From NCBI RefSeq assembly GCF_020991365.1, contig NZ_JAJLRA010000040.1, positions 1 through 39,891 on the forward strand: a stretch of 39,891 bases of DNA, in the 5' to 3' direction. The notes below the pieces were generated by a model. It saw nothing but the letters and a program-made list of their open reading frames with translations. It was not told the origin of the DNA and searched no databases. Below are positions 15,759-20,821 of the stretch, one piece after another (positions within the stretch are counted from its first letter, which is position 1; every line of letters begins with the position of its first letter). The translations under genes were made by a program, and so were the position numbers. This stretch comes from Streptacidiphilus sp. ASG 303. GTDB taxonomy: Bacteria > Actinomycetota > Actinomycetes > Streptomycetales > Streptomycetaceae.

Positions 15759-16265
15759 ATGTCGGACACGACCGCCACGACCGCCGTCCGCACCGCCGCC
15801 GTCGCGAGGACCGGGGAGGCCGGGGAGGGCCGGGCCCGGGTGCTGACGGGCCGTACCGGCGCCGGGACCGCCCCGGAGGAGCGCGGCCGGACCACCATCG
15901 CGGACAGCGTGGTGGAGAAGATCGCGGGCATGGCCGCCCGCGAGGTCCCCGGCATCCACAGCCTGGGCGCGGGCATGGTGCGGACCCTCGGCGCCGTCCG
16001 GGACCGGGTGCCCGGCGGCCGGGCCAACGTCTCACGGGGCGTGAAGGTCGAGGTCGGCGAGCGCCAGGCGGCCGTGGACATCGACGTCGTCGTCGAGTAC
16101 GGCGTGCCGATCGCGGAGGTCGCCGCGGACGTGCGCAGCAGCGTGATCGCCGCCGTGGAGCGGATGACGGGCCTGGAGGTCGTCGAGGTGAACATCGCCG
16201 TCGACGACGTCCACCTGCCCGACGAGCAGGACGACCTCCCGGAGCCCGAGAGCCGGGTGAAGTGA
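15759..16265 (+). CDS. Asp23/Gls24 family envelope stress protein (1)
   Basis: A 168-residue cytoplasmic protein with a complete Asp23 domain (about 45-155): TTIADSVVEKIAGMAAREVP, the GVKVEVGERQAAVDIDVVVE strand pair, VADVRSSVIAAVERMTGLEV and VNIAVDDVHLP. In Firmicutes, Asp23 polymers attach to the membrane through AmaP and respond to envelope or alkaline stress. ATG 15759 follows GAGGAGGAGG, a strong ribosome site. It is the first gene of a eight-gene cluster that also holds an AmaP-like protein and an ECF sigma factor. Confidence 0.9.
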   Translation: MSDTTATTAVRTAAVARTGEAGEGRARVLTGRTGAGTAPEERGRTTIADSVVEKIAGMAAREVPGIHSLGAGMVRTLGAVRDRVPGGRANVSRGVKVEVGERQAAVDIDVVVEYGVPIAEVAADVRSSVIAAVERMTGLEVVEVNIAVDDVHLPDEQDDLPEPESRVK

Positions 16266-16293
16266 CGGCCCGGGCCTGCGGAGGGGCGTCGCG

Positions 16294-16482
16294 ATGAGCG
16301 GAGCGGTGGTGGGGCTGGCCGCGGGCATGGCCCTGGGGTTCGCGGGGGCGTTCGGCGGCTTCTGGGCGTTCCTGCTGGTGGCCGTGCTCGGCGCGGTGGG
16401 CCTGGTCGCGGGGCGCGTCCTCGACGGCGGCCTCGACGTCCGGGACCTCCGGGACCTCGTGCGACCGCGGGACCGGCGGTGA
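16294..16482 (+). CDS. Small membrane protein of the Asp23 cluster
   Basis: A 62-residue protein with one long hydrophobic hairpin or two short helices (about 3-43) and a charged C-terminus. In size and position it resembles the small DUF2273-like membrane proteins next to Asp23 genes. It starts 28 bases after the Asp23 stop, and its stop overlaps the next gene's GTG by 4 bases (GTGA), so translation is probably coupled. Confidence 0.75.
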   Translation: MSGAVVGLAAGMALGFAGAFGGFWAFLLVAVLGAVGLVAGRVLDGGLDVRDLRDLVRPRDRR

Positions 16483-18717: not shown

Positions 18718-19497
18718 ATGGGAGAAGGTCCCTCGACCGCCGTGCCCGGCGACGGCCGCGCGGGGCCGGCCGCGGACGCCCCGGGCCTCCTCCCCCACGG
18801 GGACGGGCCGGGGACGGAGCAGGCCGGGCCGGGGCGGTCCGGTCCCTCGCGGCCCGGTCCGGGGCCGGGCACGGCCGGTCCGGCCGCCCGGTCCGCCCCT
18901 GCCCCAGCCCCAGCCCCTGCCCCCGTCGCCGCCCGCGTCCCCGTGCCGGACGAGCGCCTGCTGGACGACCGGCTGCTGGCCGTCCGCGCCGCCGAGGGCG
19001 ACGACGACGCCTTCGCGGAGCTGGTCCGCCGCCACAGCGGGACCATGCTGGCCCTCGCCCACCGCATGCTCGGCAGCCGCCCCGACGCCGAGGACGCCGT
19101 GCAGGACGCCTTCGTCAGCGCGTGGCGCCGGCTGCCGGAGTTCCGCCACGACTCGGCGTTCGGCACCTGGATGTACCGCATCGTCACCAACCGCTGCCTC
19201 AACGCCCTGCGCAGCCGCCCGCCCGCCGTGCGGCTGGAGGACGTGCCCGAGCCCCCGGCGTCCGGGGGCCTCGGCGCCCCGGCCCGCACCGCCGAGGCGG
19301 ACGCCGCCATGGCCGCCCTCGCCGAGGCGCTCCAGCGGCTCAGCCCCGAGCAGCGGGCCTGCTGGGTGCTGCGGGAGCTGCACGGCCTCCCCTACGAGGA
19401 GATCGCGCACGTGACGGATACCAGTGAGCAGGCGGTGCGCGGCAGACTCTTCCGCGCACGGCGGGCCCTGACGGAGGTGATGAGCCCATGGCGCTAG
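18718..19497 (+). CDS. ECF sigma factor of the Asp23 cluster
   Basis: A 259-residue sigma-70 family protein with a disordered Pro/Gly-rich N-terminus (about 80 residues). Region 2 spans about 97-165 (DDDAFAELVRRHSG, DAEDAVQDAFVSAWRRLPEF, FGTWMYRIVTNRCLN). Region 4 spans about 198-252 (LQRLSPEQRACWVLRELHGL, YEEIAHVTDTSEQAVRGRLF). There is no region 3, so it is ECF class and resembles the SigM/SigW group. ATG 18718 is chosen for its ribosome site (GAGGAG) and because the upstream frame has no domain. The next gene, coding a zinc-binding Asp23 protein, overlaps its end by 10 bases, as sigma/anti-sigma pairs often do. It likely controls this cluster. Confidence 0.88.
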   Translation: MGEGPSTAVPGDGRAGPAADAPGLLPHGDGPGTEQAGPGRSGPSRPGPGPGTAGPAARSAPAPAPAPAPVAARVPVPDERLLDDRLLAVRAAEGDDDAFAELVRRHSGTMLALAHRMLGSRPDAEDAVQDAFVSAWRRLPEFRHDSAFGTWMYRIVTNRCLNALRSRPPAVRLEDVPEPPASGGLGAPARTAEADAAMAALAEALQRLSPEQRACWVLRELHGLPYEEIAHVTDTSEQAVRGRLFRARRALTEVMSPWR

Positions 19498-20285
19498 GCG
19501 ATCGGCCGGACACCCCGGGCGGGGACGGACCGCGGCGGCACGACGGCCTTCGGCGGGAGACCGGTGTGCGGCGGGAGACCGGTGTGCGGCAGGACACGGG
19601 TCCGCGGCAGGACACCGCGTCCCTGCCCGGCACCGGGCTGCCGCCCGGGGACGAGCTGCTGCCCTGCGGGCGCTCGCTCGGCGGCGCCTGGGACGACGTC
19701 GACTCCGGGAGCGGGCCGCCCGACGGCCACCCCGCCGACTGCCCGTACTGCCGGGAGGCCGCGGACGGGCTGCGGGCGCTGGGCCGGGCCGCGCGGTCCC
19801 TGCGGGCGCAGACCCCGGGGGCGCGGCCGGAGGCCGGCACCGACGCCTTCACGGCCCGGGTGATGGAGGCGGTGCGCGCCGAGGTGCGGCTCGGCAGGCT
19901 GCTGCCGCTGGGTCCGCCGGAGGAACGGCTGCGGGTGTCCGAGGCCGCCGCGGCGAAGGTGCTGCGGGGCGCGGCCGACGCCGTCCCCGGGGTGCGGGCG
20001 GCGAGCTGCCGCCTGATGGCCGAGGAGGACGGCGGCGTACGGGTCGCGATGACCCTGGCCGCCGGGCTGGACACGCCCTTCCCCGAGCAGGCGGACCGGG
20101 TGCGGCGGGCCGTGCGGGACGCGGCCGACCGCGCCCTGGGGCTCGTCGTGGGCGGGGTCGACCTGGAGGTGTCGGCGCTGCTGCCGTCACCGGACGGCGC
20201 GGCGGAGGACGCGGGGGGTCCCGCGGCGGGTCGCCCGGCGGAGGACGGACCGGCCGCCGGTCCGGCGGACGAGGAGGAGCGATGA
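19488..20285 (+). CDS. Zinc-finger anti-sigma-like domain fused to Asp23 domain
   Basis: A 265-residue soluble protein. The N-terminus carries four 6-residue repeats (RRETGV, RRETGV, RQDTGP, RQDTAS; about 22-45). A zinc-binding anti-sigma-like motif follows: C60 and the H-x3-C-x2-C signature H81/C85/C88 (GHPADCPYC). The second half (about 145-232) is Asp23-like: VSEAAAAKVLRGAADAVPGV, VRVAMTLAAGL, GGVDLEVSALL. It overlaps the sigma gene by 10 bases and has GGAGGTGAT upstream. It is probably the anti-sigma factor and would couple the Asp23 scaffold to sigma release; this is inference. No transmembrane segment is seen, unlike most such anti-sigma factors. Confidence 0.75.
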   Translation: MALGDRPDTPGGDGPRRHDGLRRETGVRRETGVRQDTGPRQDTASLPGTGLPPGDELLPCGRSLGGAWDDVDSGSGPPDGHPADCPYCREAADGLRALGRAARSLRAQTPGARPEAGTDAFTARVMEAVRAEVRLGRLLPLGPPEERLRVSEAAAAKVLRGAADAVPGVRAASCRLMAEEDGGVRVAMTLAAGLDTPFPEQADRVRRAVRDAADRALGLVVGGVDLEVSALLPSPDGAAEDAGGPAAGRPAEDGPAAGPADEEER

Positions 20286-20821
20286 ACCGGGTCACCGACG
20301 CCGAGGTCGCGGCGGCCGCCGCCGGGGCCGCGCTGGCCGTTCCCGGCGTCGCCGGGCTGCAGCCGCGCGTCGCCGACCTGCTCTCCCGGGCCGCGGCCCG
20401 GTTCGCGGGCGAGGTGGCCGCCCAGGTCACGGGCCAGGTCACGGGCCAGGCCGCGGATCAGGCCGCGGGCCGTGCGGGCGGCTCCGGCGCCGGACGGGTG
20501 CCGGACGGGGCGGGCGTCCGGGCGGAGCGGCAGGGCGGCGGCGCGGGATGGCAGGTGGAGGTGCGCTGCGTCCTGGACGGCGGGACGAGGGCCCTGGACG
20601 CGGCGCGCGCCGTGCGCGCCGCCGTCCTGGCGGCGGTCGCGGACCTGCTGGCCGCCCGCGGGGAGCCGGAGCCGGTCTCGGTGGGCGTGACGGTCACCCG
20701 CGTCGGCCTCCCCGTGCCCGCCGGAGAGGGTGCCGCGCCGTCCGGCGCGGCACCCTCCGGTGAAGCGGCGGGGCGCGGGCGGGCGGGCGGACCGGAGCGG
20801 AGCCCGCAGCCGCAGGACTGA
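20282..20821 (+). CDS. Asp23-like protein (3), end of cluster
   Basis: A 179-residue protein with a divergent Asp23-like domain: DAEVAAAAAGAALAVPGVAG, a Gln/Ala repeat region (AAQVTGQVTGQAADQAAG), WQVEVRCVLDGG, VRAAVLAAVADLLAARG and VSVGVTVTRVGLP. The start overlaps the upstream stop (ATGA). A perfect 14-bp hairpin (20726-20757) lies within its 3' coding end. Confidence 0.72.
   Translation: MNRVTDAEVAAAAAGAALAVPGVAGLQPRVADLLSRAAARFAGEVAAQVTGQVTGQAADQAAGRAGGSGAGRVPDGAGVRAERQGGGAGWQVEVRCVLDGGTRALDAARAVRAAVLAAVADLLAARGEPEPVSVGVTVTRVGLPVPAGEGAAPSGAAPSGEAAGRGRAGGPERSPQPQD
20726..20757 (+). terminator. Hairpin inside the 3' end of the last Asp23-like gene
   Basis: A 14-bp perfect stem (20726-20739 with 20744-20757) and a 4-base loop. 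It lies 62 bases before the stop, with no T-run. It may act as an overlapping terminator of the cluster. Confidence 0.4.

What the first reader, a model, noticed from the sequence alone, without database searches (positions are those of the whole stretch)
15759..20821. Asp23-AmaP envelope cluster wired to an ECF sigma factor through a zinc-finger/Asp23 fusion
Three Asp23 proteins, a DUF6286-type protein, AmaP and a small membrane protein sit with an ECF sigma factor and a protein joining an anti-sigma zinc motif to an Asp23 domain. This suggests that the Asp23 membrane scaffold itself carries the anti-sigma factor, so loss of scaffold order would free the sigma factor. I know of no tested model of this kind.
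Basis: partly seen in the sequence, partly recalled or inferred. Interest (0 to 1): 0.68.

Follow-up and report, generated by a model that had tools for sequence, protein, structure and literature searches.

The report
Sigma switch fused to envelope scaffold
Streptomyces-type bacteria carry a gene switch (a sigma factor) whose likely off-switch protein is fused to a building block of a membrane-associated stress scaffold, and in many relatives the switch appears to drive both itself and that scaffold, which suggests that the cell senses the state of its own envelope scaffold.

Summary
Window 15759-20821 encodes an Asp23/AmaP-like cluster, an ECF sigma factor, a protein joining a CHCC anti-sigma-like zinc domain to an Asp23 domain, and a divergent Asp23. 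Of 101 loci examined, 62 have the full zinc motif, all 62 with a sigma gene nearby; 3 have an adjacent sigma but a damaged motif; 36 zinc-less paralogous loci have no adjacent sigma. The pair recurs in other families of the class (sigma adjacent in 29 of 29 recognised loci); zinc ligands are lost in one family (10 of 10 fetched). The window itself lacks it, and its clade has it only toward sigma (11 of 12, against 0 of 12). Asp23-family anti-sigma factors were already predicted in print (ECF286/ECF292; PMC8999054). Release of sigma by scaffold disorder remains inference.

The parts
15759..16265 (+). Asp23A, canonical Asp23 protein (168 aa)
   Evidence: PF03780 E 1.4e-31
16294..16482 (+). small membrane protein, DUF2273-like
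   Evidence: PF10031 E 4.8e-5, below cut-off
16479..16910 (+). Asp23B (143 aa, GTG start)
   Evidence: PF03780 E 2.7e-8
17107..17877 (+). DUF6286 protein; its family resembles the fusion's Asp23 domain
   Evidence: PF19803 E 1.8e-29; profile match to the fusion 94%, but only 4% to Asp23A
17874..18464 (+). AmaP-like membrane anchor
   Evidence: NF033218 E 5.9e-12, below cut-off; profile match to the fusion 90%, none to Asp23A
18718..19497 (+). ECF sigma factor (ORF open from 18577; ATG 18718 follows GAGGAG)
   Evidence: Sigma70_r2 E 2.2e-19, Sigma70_r4_2 E 5.8e-15; start read from the sequence
19488..20285 (+). anti-sigma-like zinc domain fused to Asp23 domain (265 aa); start overlaps sigma stop by 10 nt
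   Evidence: same overlap in 83 of 94 distinct fusions whose start could be recognised
19659..19886 (+). class I anti-sigma-like domain, residues 58-133; C60, H81, C85, C88
   Evidence: helices 64-73, 81-84, 86-108, 118-133; profile match to zf-HC2 anti-sigma domains
19917..20183 (+). Asp23 domain of the fusion, residues 144-232
   Evidence: alpha-beta-beta-alpha-beta, pLDDT blocks mostly 95 or more
20007..20009 (+). Cys174 of the fusion, invariant in the family's sigma-linked fusions, absent from the sigma-less paralogues
   Evidence: 65 of 65; 57 of 57 ungapped against 0 of 33 (at least two of the 33 rows were a neighbouring domain)
20282..20821 (+). Asp23C, divergent Asp23 protein (179 aa)
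   Evidence: profile match of its family to Asp23A 95%, score 56 against 14.8 in shuffles
15683..15712 (-). possible relic of the sigma-operon promoter (TCGGACCC-N15-CTCACGC), pointing away from asp23A
   Evidence: PWM score 13.1, below the weakest training site 19.7; tentative

Best explanation
The fusion is the cognate soluble anti-sigma factor of the ECF sigma factor. Its N-terminal class I anti-sigma-like domain holds sigma, and its Asp23 domain docks it on the membrane-anchored Asp23/AmaP/DUF6286 scaffold, so that sigma activity reports the state of the scaffold. When the scaffold is intact, sigma is held; when it is thinned or disordered, sigma is freed and transcribes its own operon and, in the larger clade of relatives, the scaffold operon, restoring the scaffold and re-making the inhibitor (homeostatic loop). 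Shown here by computation: gene pair, domain make-up, conserved coupling, and a shared promoter-like motif in relatives. Inferred: that this sigma reads the motif, sigma binding, docking, the direction of the response, and the signal.
For: Gene pair: of 101 loci, 62 have the full zinc motif, all with a sigma gene nearby; 36 zinc-less paralogous loci have no adjacent sigma. Of 30 loci from other families the fusion frame was recognised in 29, sigma adjacent in all 29. Start/stop overlap of 10 nt in 83 and 4 nt in 9 of 94 distinct fusions (92 and 10 of 104 loci). Anti-sigma domain: profile match to 11 zf-HC2 domains of the same genome, score 35.6 against at most 17.3 in 40 shuffles, 41.3 against 15.7 in 30; 3hug_B, which I know as M. 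tuberculosis RslA, aligned over H-x3-C-x2-C at E 0.07; RsrA model TIGR03988 in 3 of 60 members, best E 0.008. Wiring: motif toward sigma in 56 and toward asp23A in 43 of 70 regions, both in 35, against 11/700 and 15/700 shuffles and 0 of 22 sigma-less regions; strict pattern 35 hits in 60 of the 62 genomes with a full-length fusion, 31 of them in promoter position, against 3 hits in 60 genomes without one. Precedent in S. aureus: Asp23 binds AmaP, forms filaments, and deletion of either induces the cell wall stress response (PMC6954212, passages).
Against: No binding or localisation data. The window's own cluster has no match to the promoter motif and its genome none to the strict form; in the window's clade the motif faces only the sigma operon (11 of 12 against 0 of 12). 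By a plainer core pattern the motif is seen in fewer loci (19 of 61 and 26 of 76 in the family sets). Three relatives keep an adjacent sigma but have a damaged motif: L081 one Cys, L123 the His, L126 all. Few members match zf-HC2 by plain search (1 of 60); structure searches with the anti-sigma part alone gave no significant match (inconclusive). In PDB profile searches YraP ties with 3hug_B and three zinc-finger chains rank above it. Mirror-tree signal beyond phylogeny is weak (partial r 0.30, no more than for the Asp23 part, 0.38). The zinc/sigma correlation is one split on the tree. The start-overlap count depends on a recognisable start; 67 of 174 loci were not scored.
Confidence: 0.55

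Rival explanations
1. The fusion is the anti-sigma factor, but the input is redox or thiol chemistry at the CHCC zinc site (RsrA-like), perhaps with the extra Cys174; the Asp23 domain only places the sensor near the membrane.
For: CHCC ligands conserved in the family (64, 57, 63, 64 of 65); Cys174 in 65 of 65, also in one locus of another family of the order (L015), and absent from sigma-less paralogues; soluble anti-sigma domains are rich in zinc motifs (PMC7406223, passages).
Against: Ten of ten fetched loci of one other family keep sigma and fusion but lose ligands, and L081, L123, L126 have damaged motifs; Cys174 was not seen in the 29 loci from other families of the class.
Confidence: 0.2
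2. Same parts, opposite sign: the free fusion holds sigma, and docking on newly made Asp23 scaffold pulls the anti-sigma factor away and activates sigma (positive feedback).
For: Same anatomy and shared motif fit either sign.
Against: A self-amplifying loop with no other brake is less usual for stress sigma factors (general knowledge); no data here decide.
Confidence: 0.13
3. The fusion is a scaffold component that shares an operon with an unrelated sigma factor; the zinc motif is structural and does not bind sigma.
For: Plain family searches of the fusion find no anti-sigma family above cut-off.
Against: Consistent co-occurrence, frequent 10-nt overlap and recurrence across the class; profile match to anti-sigma domains.
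Confidence: 0.07

Closest known systems
ECF groups ECF286 and ECF292 (as described in PMC8999054)
   Different: The passage read does not mention a zinc domain, a fusion, a shared promoter or the AmaP scaffold; whether this sigma falls in either group could not be tested here.
Class I zinc anti-sigma factors RsrA / RslA
   Same: H-x3-C-x2-C signature with an upstream ligand, helical layout, gene directly behind sigma.
   Different: C-terminal part is an Asp23 domain; zinc ligands lost in one family.
Staphylococcus aureus Asp23-AmaP system
   Same: Asp23 protein with AmaP anchor; precedent that losing either triggers envelope stress genes (PMC6954212, passages).
   Different: No ECF sigma or anti-sigma fusion there in the passages read.
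Sigma-less Streptomycetaceae Asp23 loci (L124-L160 except L126, and the second cluster L161 in the same genome)
   Same: Same Asp23A-to-AmaP operon; in the 36 fetched loci (not in L161) a paralogue of the fusion's Asp23 domain lies divergent to it.
   Different: No zinc domain, no adjacent sigma, no Cys174, no motif in 22 regions or by the core pattern in 32 (a looser form hits 2 of 32).

Membership tests
Asp23 family (fusion C-terminus) | Asp23 profile match | tested here: met
   Below cut-off for the window protein alone; 44 of 60 members match at E 0.1 or better, best 8e-7; profile match to Asp23A 94%.
Class I anti-sigma domain | H-x3-C-x2-C zinc signature with an upstream ligand | tested here: met
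   C60, H81, C85, C88; 62 of 65 sigma-linked family loci keep the full motif, six of these with H-x2-C.
Class I anti-sigma domain | Sequence-profile relation to known anti-sigma domains | tested here: met
   hhalign 35.6 against 17.3 in 40 shuffles, 41.3 against 15.7 in 30; weak by plain HMM.
Class I anti-sigma domain | Three-helix bundle plus helix 4, matched to a solved fold | tested here: inconclusive
   Helices 13-22, 30-33, 35-57, 67-83 in the part folded alone; no significant match in PDB searches.
Class I anti-sigma domain | Binds the cognate ECF sigma factor | not testable with these tools
   Needs a complex prediction or experiment.
RsrA-type redox sensor | Zinc release on oxidation frees sigma | not testable with these tools
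   Only ligand conservation could be checked.
ECF286 / ECF292 | Sigma factor falls in the group by its HMM | not tested
   The group models are not among the libraries on hand, and the classification paper is not held.
AmaP | NF033218 over its curated cut-off | tested here: not met
   45.7 bits against 55; called AmaP-like here.

The most novel reading that the evidence does not exclude
A bacterial envelope scaffold measures itself: an Asp23-domain subunit of the scaffold is the anti-sigma factor, so the amount or order of the cytoplasmic Asp23 lattice, not an outside signal, sets the activity of a nearly dedicated sigma factor whose main targets are its own operon and the scaffold operon.
Probability: 0.38. 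Interest if true: 0.82.

Novelty: new variant of a known kind. Interest (0 to 1): 0.63.

Why it matters
The molecular function of Asp23 is still unclear, although it has a critical role in cell envelope homeostasis in S. aureus (PMC6954212, passages). A sigma circuit whose inhibitor is itself an Asp23 protein, and whose strict promoter motif is nearly private to this locus, would offer a transcriptional read-out of scaffold state and a simple genetic way to ask what the scaffold does. It also turns a bare prediction in print (Asp23-family anti-sigma factors) into a domain model, a promoter model and a set of named strains to test.

Tried and rejected
Rejected: PrsW protease (21869-23278) as part of the system. 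PrsW and the neighbouring trmB have no homologue in the 211 other loci scanned, most of which are about 12-16 kb (the third query there, lhgO, was read in a wrong frame and does not count). Rejected: zinc chemistry as the universal signal. Not used as proof: zinc conservation in the 80 named loci, because one of the two search seeds was the zinc motif itself; the mirror-tree correlation, which is mostly shared ancestry. The first promoter script mis-sorted the loci and its words probably came from coding sequence; redone. A first shuffle control for Asp23C gave an implausible maximum of 132; redone on match columns only, maximum 14.8. The iterated Asp23C model drifted toward low-complexity frames (seen), so presence of Asp23C in relatives is not counted anywhere. 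Gene order printed is by starts of stop-to-stop frames and can swap neighbours. Structure search with the anti-sigma part alone gave no significant match. The Asp23 domain's best structural matches were cation-efflux C-terminal domains (MamM, Z 11.0), with ring-building folds of PrgK, EscJ and FliF at Z 10.5, 9.5 and 8.6: taken only as fold support.
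Full report
What is in the window. The eight genes from 15759 to 20821 run in one direction: asp23A, a DUF2273-like membrane protein, asp23B, a DUF6286 protein, an AmaP-like protein, an ECF sigma factor, the zinc/Asp23 fusion, and a divergent Asp23. The same genome has a second Asp23A-to-AmaP cluster; no sigma or fusion was recognised in the 16.8 kb around it.

The fusion. Residues 58-133 hold C60-x20-H81-x3-C85-x2-C88 and predicted helices 64-73, 81-84, 86-108 and 118-133; residues 144-232 form an alpha-beta-beta-alpha-beta domain with pLDDT blocks mostly 95 or more (whole model 75, pTM 0.48, so the placement of the two domains is not known). I see no transmembrane stretch, so I take it as soluble (inference). 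The Asp23 part matches Asp23A by profile (94%, score 54.4 against at most 17.3 in 30 shuffles) and PF03780 in 44 of 60 relatives at E 0.1 or better. The zinc part matches 11 zf-HC2 domains from the same genome (35.6 against at most 17.3 in 40 shuffles; 41.3 against 15.7 in 30). Weak single hits are PDB 3hug_B, which I know as RslA (E 0.07 with A3, tied with YraP; 0.017 with A4, below three zinc-finger chains), and the RsrA model in 3 of 60 members; zf-HC2 itself is hit by 1 of 60. A structure search with the zinc part folded alone gave no significant match, which neither supports nor excludes. Profile comparison also ties DUF6286 and AmaP to the fusion's Asp23 domain (94% and 90%) but not to Asp23A directly (4% and 0.2%), so a chain of Asp23-like domains across the cluster is likely, not proven.

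Partnership with sigma. A profile search of 297 genomes of the family gave 64 full-length matches (E below 1e-30, window included) in 62 genomes, and many shorter matches that lack the zinc part (capped list). I fetched the 63 other full-length places and 37 of the shorter ones. Of these 100 loci plus the window, 62 have the full zinc motif and each has a sigma gene nearby; 32 have neither; 7 have a sigma in the stretch but no full motif. Of the 7, L081, L123 and L126 have it directly upstream, with one Cys, the His, or the whole motif lost; in L132, L139, L153 and L158 it lies elsewhere. By a stricter distance rule sigma is adjacent in 63 of 64 fusion loci (L101 misses the rule), in the window, and in 0 of 36 zinc-less loci. 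Ligand conservation in 65 rows is 64, 57, 63, 64; six rows have the His one residue nearer the Cys. The query was built from eight zinc-bearing proteins, so the sample leans to them. On a tree of 90 rows (11 of 101 dropped for poor segments) the zinc-bearing and zinc-less proteins form one split, 100/99 (125 columns), so the correlation is one event with long conservation after it. Sigma stop and fusion start overlap by 10 nt in 92 and by 4 nt in 10 of 104 loci, or 83 and 9 of 94 distinct fusions; 67 further loci had no start that my pattern recognised, and that pattern may favour this layout. The window has the 10-nt overlap.

Across the class. A search of 394 genomes of the class found matches at E 1e-10 or better in 68. 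I fetched 30 places outside the family, in 28 genomes, that include or nearly include the zinc part. The fusion frame was recognised in 29 (not in L322); sigma is adjacent in all 29 and asp23A lies near in 24. The zinc signature is intact in 19; in the other 10, all from one unnamed family (f38, labels), ligands are partly or largely gone while the rest of the region persists. Anti-sigma groups mixing zinc and non-zinc members are known (PMC7406223, passages). Cys174, invariant in the family (65 of 65; 0 of 33 in zinc-less paralogues, at least two of those rows being a neighbouring domain), is also present in one locus from another family of the order (L015), but was not seen in the 29 class loci.

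Promoters. Between the divergent asp23A and sigma operons of relatives I found a bipartite motif, about gTTGGACAC-N15/16-GTCACGC, on both strands. At 11 of 13 it is present toward sigma in 56, toward asp23A in 43, both in 35, either in 64 of 70 non-redundant regions; block shuffles give 11 and 15 of 700; 22 sigma-less regions give 0. At 12 of 13: 31 and 30 of 70 against 1 and 0 of 700. The motif was drawn from these same regions, which favours them. A plainer core pattern, on a fixed stretch before sigma, hits 19 of 61 and 26 of 76 loci of the two family sets, 12 of 29 class loci and 0 of 32 sigma-less loci, with shuffles at 7 of 1220, 2 of 1520, 4 of 580 and 3 of 640. The strict pattern TTGGACACN{15,16}GTNACGC has 35 matches in 60 of the 62 genomes with a full-length fusion: by my reading of coordinates 31 in promoter position, 1 (G032) beside the fusion but not in that position, 3 elsewhere; the reversed-pattern control has 3. 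Sixty genomes without a full-length fusion have 3 matches, and 3 for the control. So outside this locus the strict form is at chance level. In the window's clade by the tree (12 regions) the motif faces sigma in 11 and asp23A in 0; in the other 58 regions it faces sigma in 45, asp23A in 43, both in 35.

The window is atypical. Its sigma operon lies behind amaP, not divergent, and it has no match to the motif (genome 0 strict matches). A degenerate element on the minus strand at 15683-15712 (TCGGACCC-N15-CTCACGC) points away from asp23A, as the sigma promoter does in divergent relatives; it may be a relic of a rearrangement, but it scores below every training site. The loop from sigma to scaffold is therefore suggested for relatives, not for this strain.

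How it most likely works. The simplest reading is a soluble class I anti-sigma factor whose sensory part is an Asp23 domain. S. aureus Asp23 binds AmaP at the membrane and forms filaments, and deletion of asp23 or amaP induces the cell wall stress response (PMC6954212, passages). If the fusion docks in such a lattice, loss of lattice would free sigma and, where the shared motif exists, remake the lattice. Binding, docking and sign are inferred. A redox input and the opposite sign remain open.

What is in print. A 2022 review states that ECF286 and ECF292 are encoded next to soluble Asp23-family proteins predicted to be anti-sigma factors, and that experimental data are lacking (PMC8999054, passages). 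The classification paper that I believe lies behind it is not held. Searches for Asp23 with ECF, anti-sigma, zinc, AmaP, Streptomyces and promoter motif (several lists capped) listed no paper that, from its listing or from the passages I read in four papers, describes the zinc/Asp23 fusion or the motif; supplements were not read. In S. venezuelae an Asp23/Gls24 gene is downregulated after ethanol shock (PMC9769785, passages); the passages do not link it to an ECF sigma. Verdict: real, conserved, partly foreseen, with a new domain model and promoter evidence; a new variant of a known kind.

Noticed in passing
window 5890-7926 (+): A second sigma-like protein: sigma regions 2 and 4 (the latter just below cut-off), zf-HC2 (below cut-off) and a C-terminal NPCBM domain in one chain, reminiscent of the ECF52 type (SCO4117) described in PMC8999054 (passage).
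   Followed up: partly
window 21869-23278 (+): PrsW-family intramembrane protease (PF13367 E 2.3e-48), two genes behind the cluster; PrsW is known to cut anti-sigma factors (recalled), but it was not found in the 211 other loci scanned.
   Followed up: yes
window 20007-20009 (fusion Cys174): A cysteine outside the zinc motif is more conserved than the zinc ligands in the family's sigma-linked fusions, and is mostly Leu or Val in sigma-less paralogues. Its role is unexplained.
   Followed up: partly
window 15683-15712 (-): Degenerate copy of the relatives' sigma-operon promoter pointing away from asp23A; perhaps a relic of the divergent layout.
   Followed up: partly
L081/L191, L123, L126: Fusions beside a sigma gene that have lost one Cys, the His, or the whole zinc motif: natural zinc-ligand variants for tests. 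L081 and L191 look like the same contig.
   Followed up: no
L337, L338, L340-L343 and L325, L329, L333, L334: One unnamed family (f38) keeps sigma and fusion but has replaced zinc ligands, partly in four loci and more fully in six.
   Followed up: partly
L252: Streptomyces sp. P3 locus with what looks like two sigma-fusion pairs in a row.
   Followed up: no
window 14400-15641 (+): FAD-dependent oxidoreductase (DAO, E 2e-55) directly upstream of asp23A.
   Followed up: no
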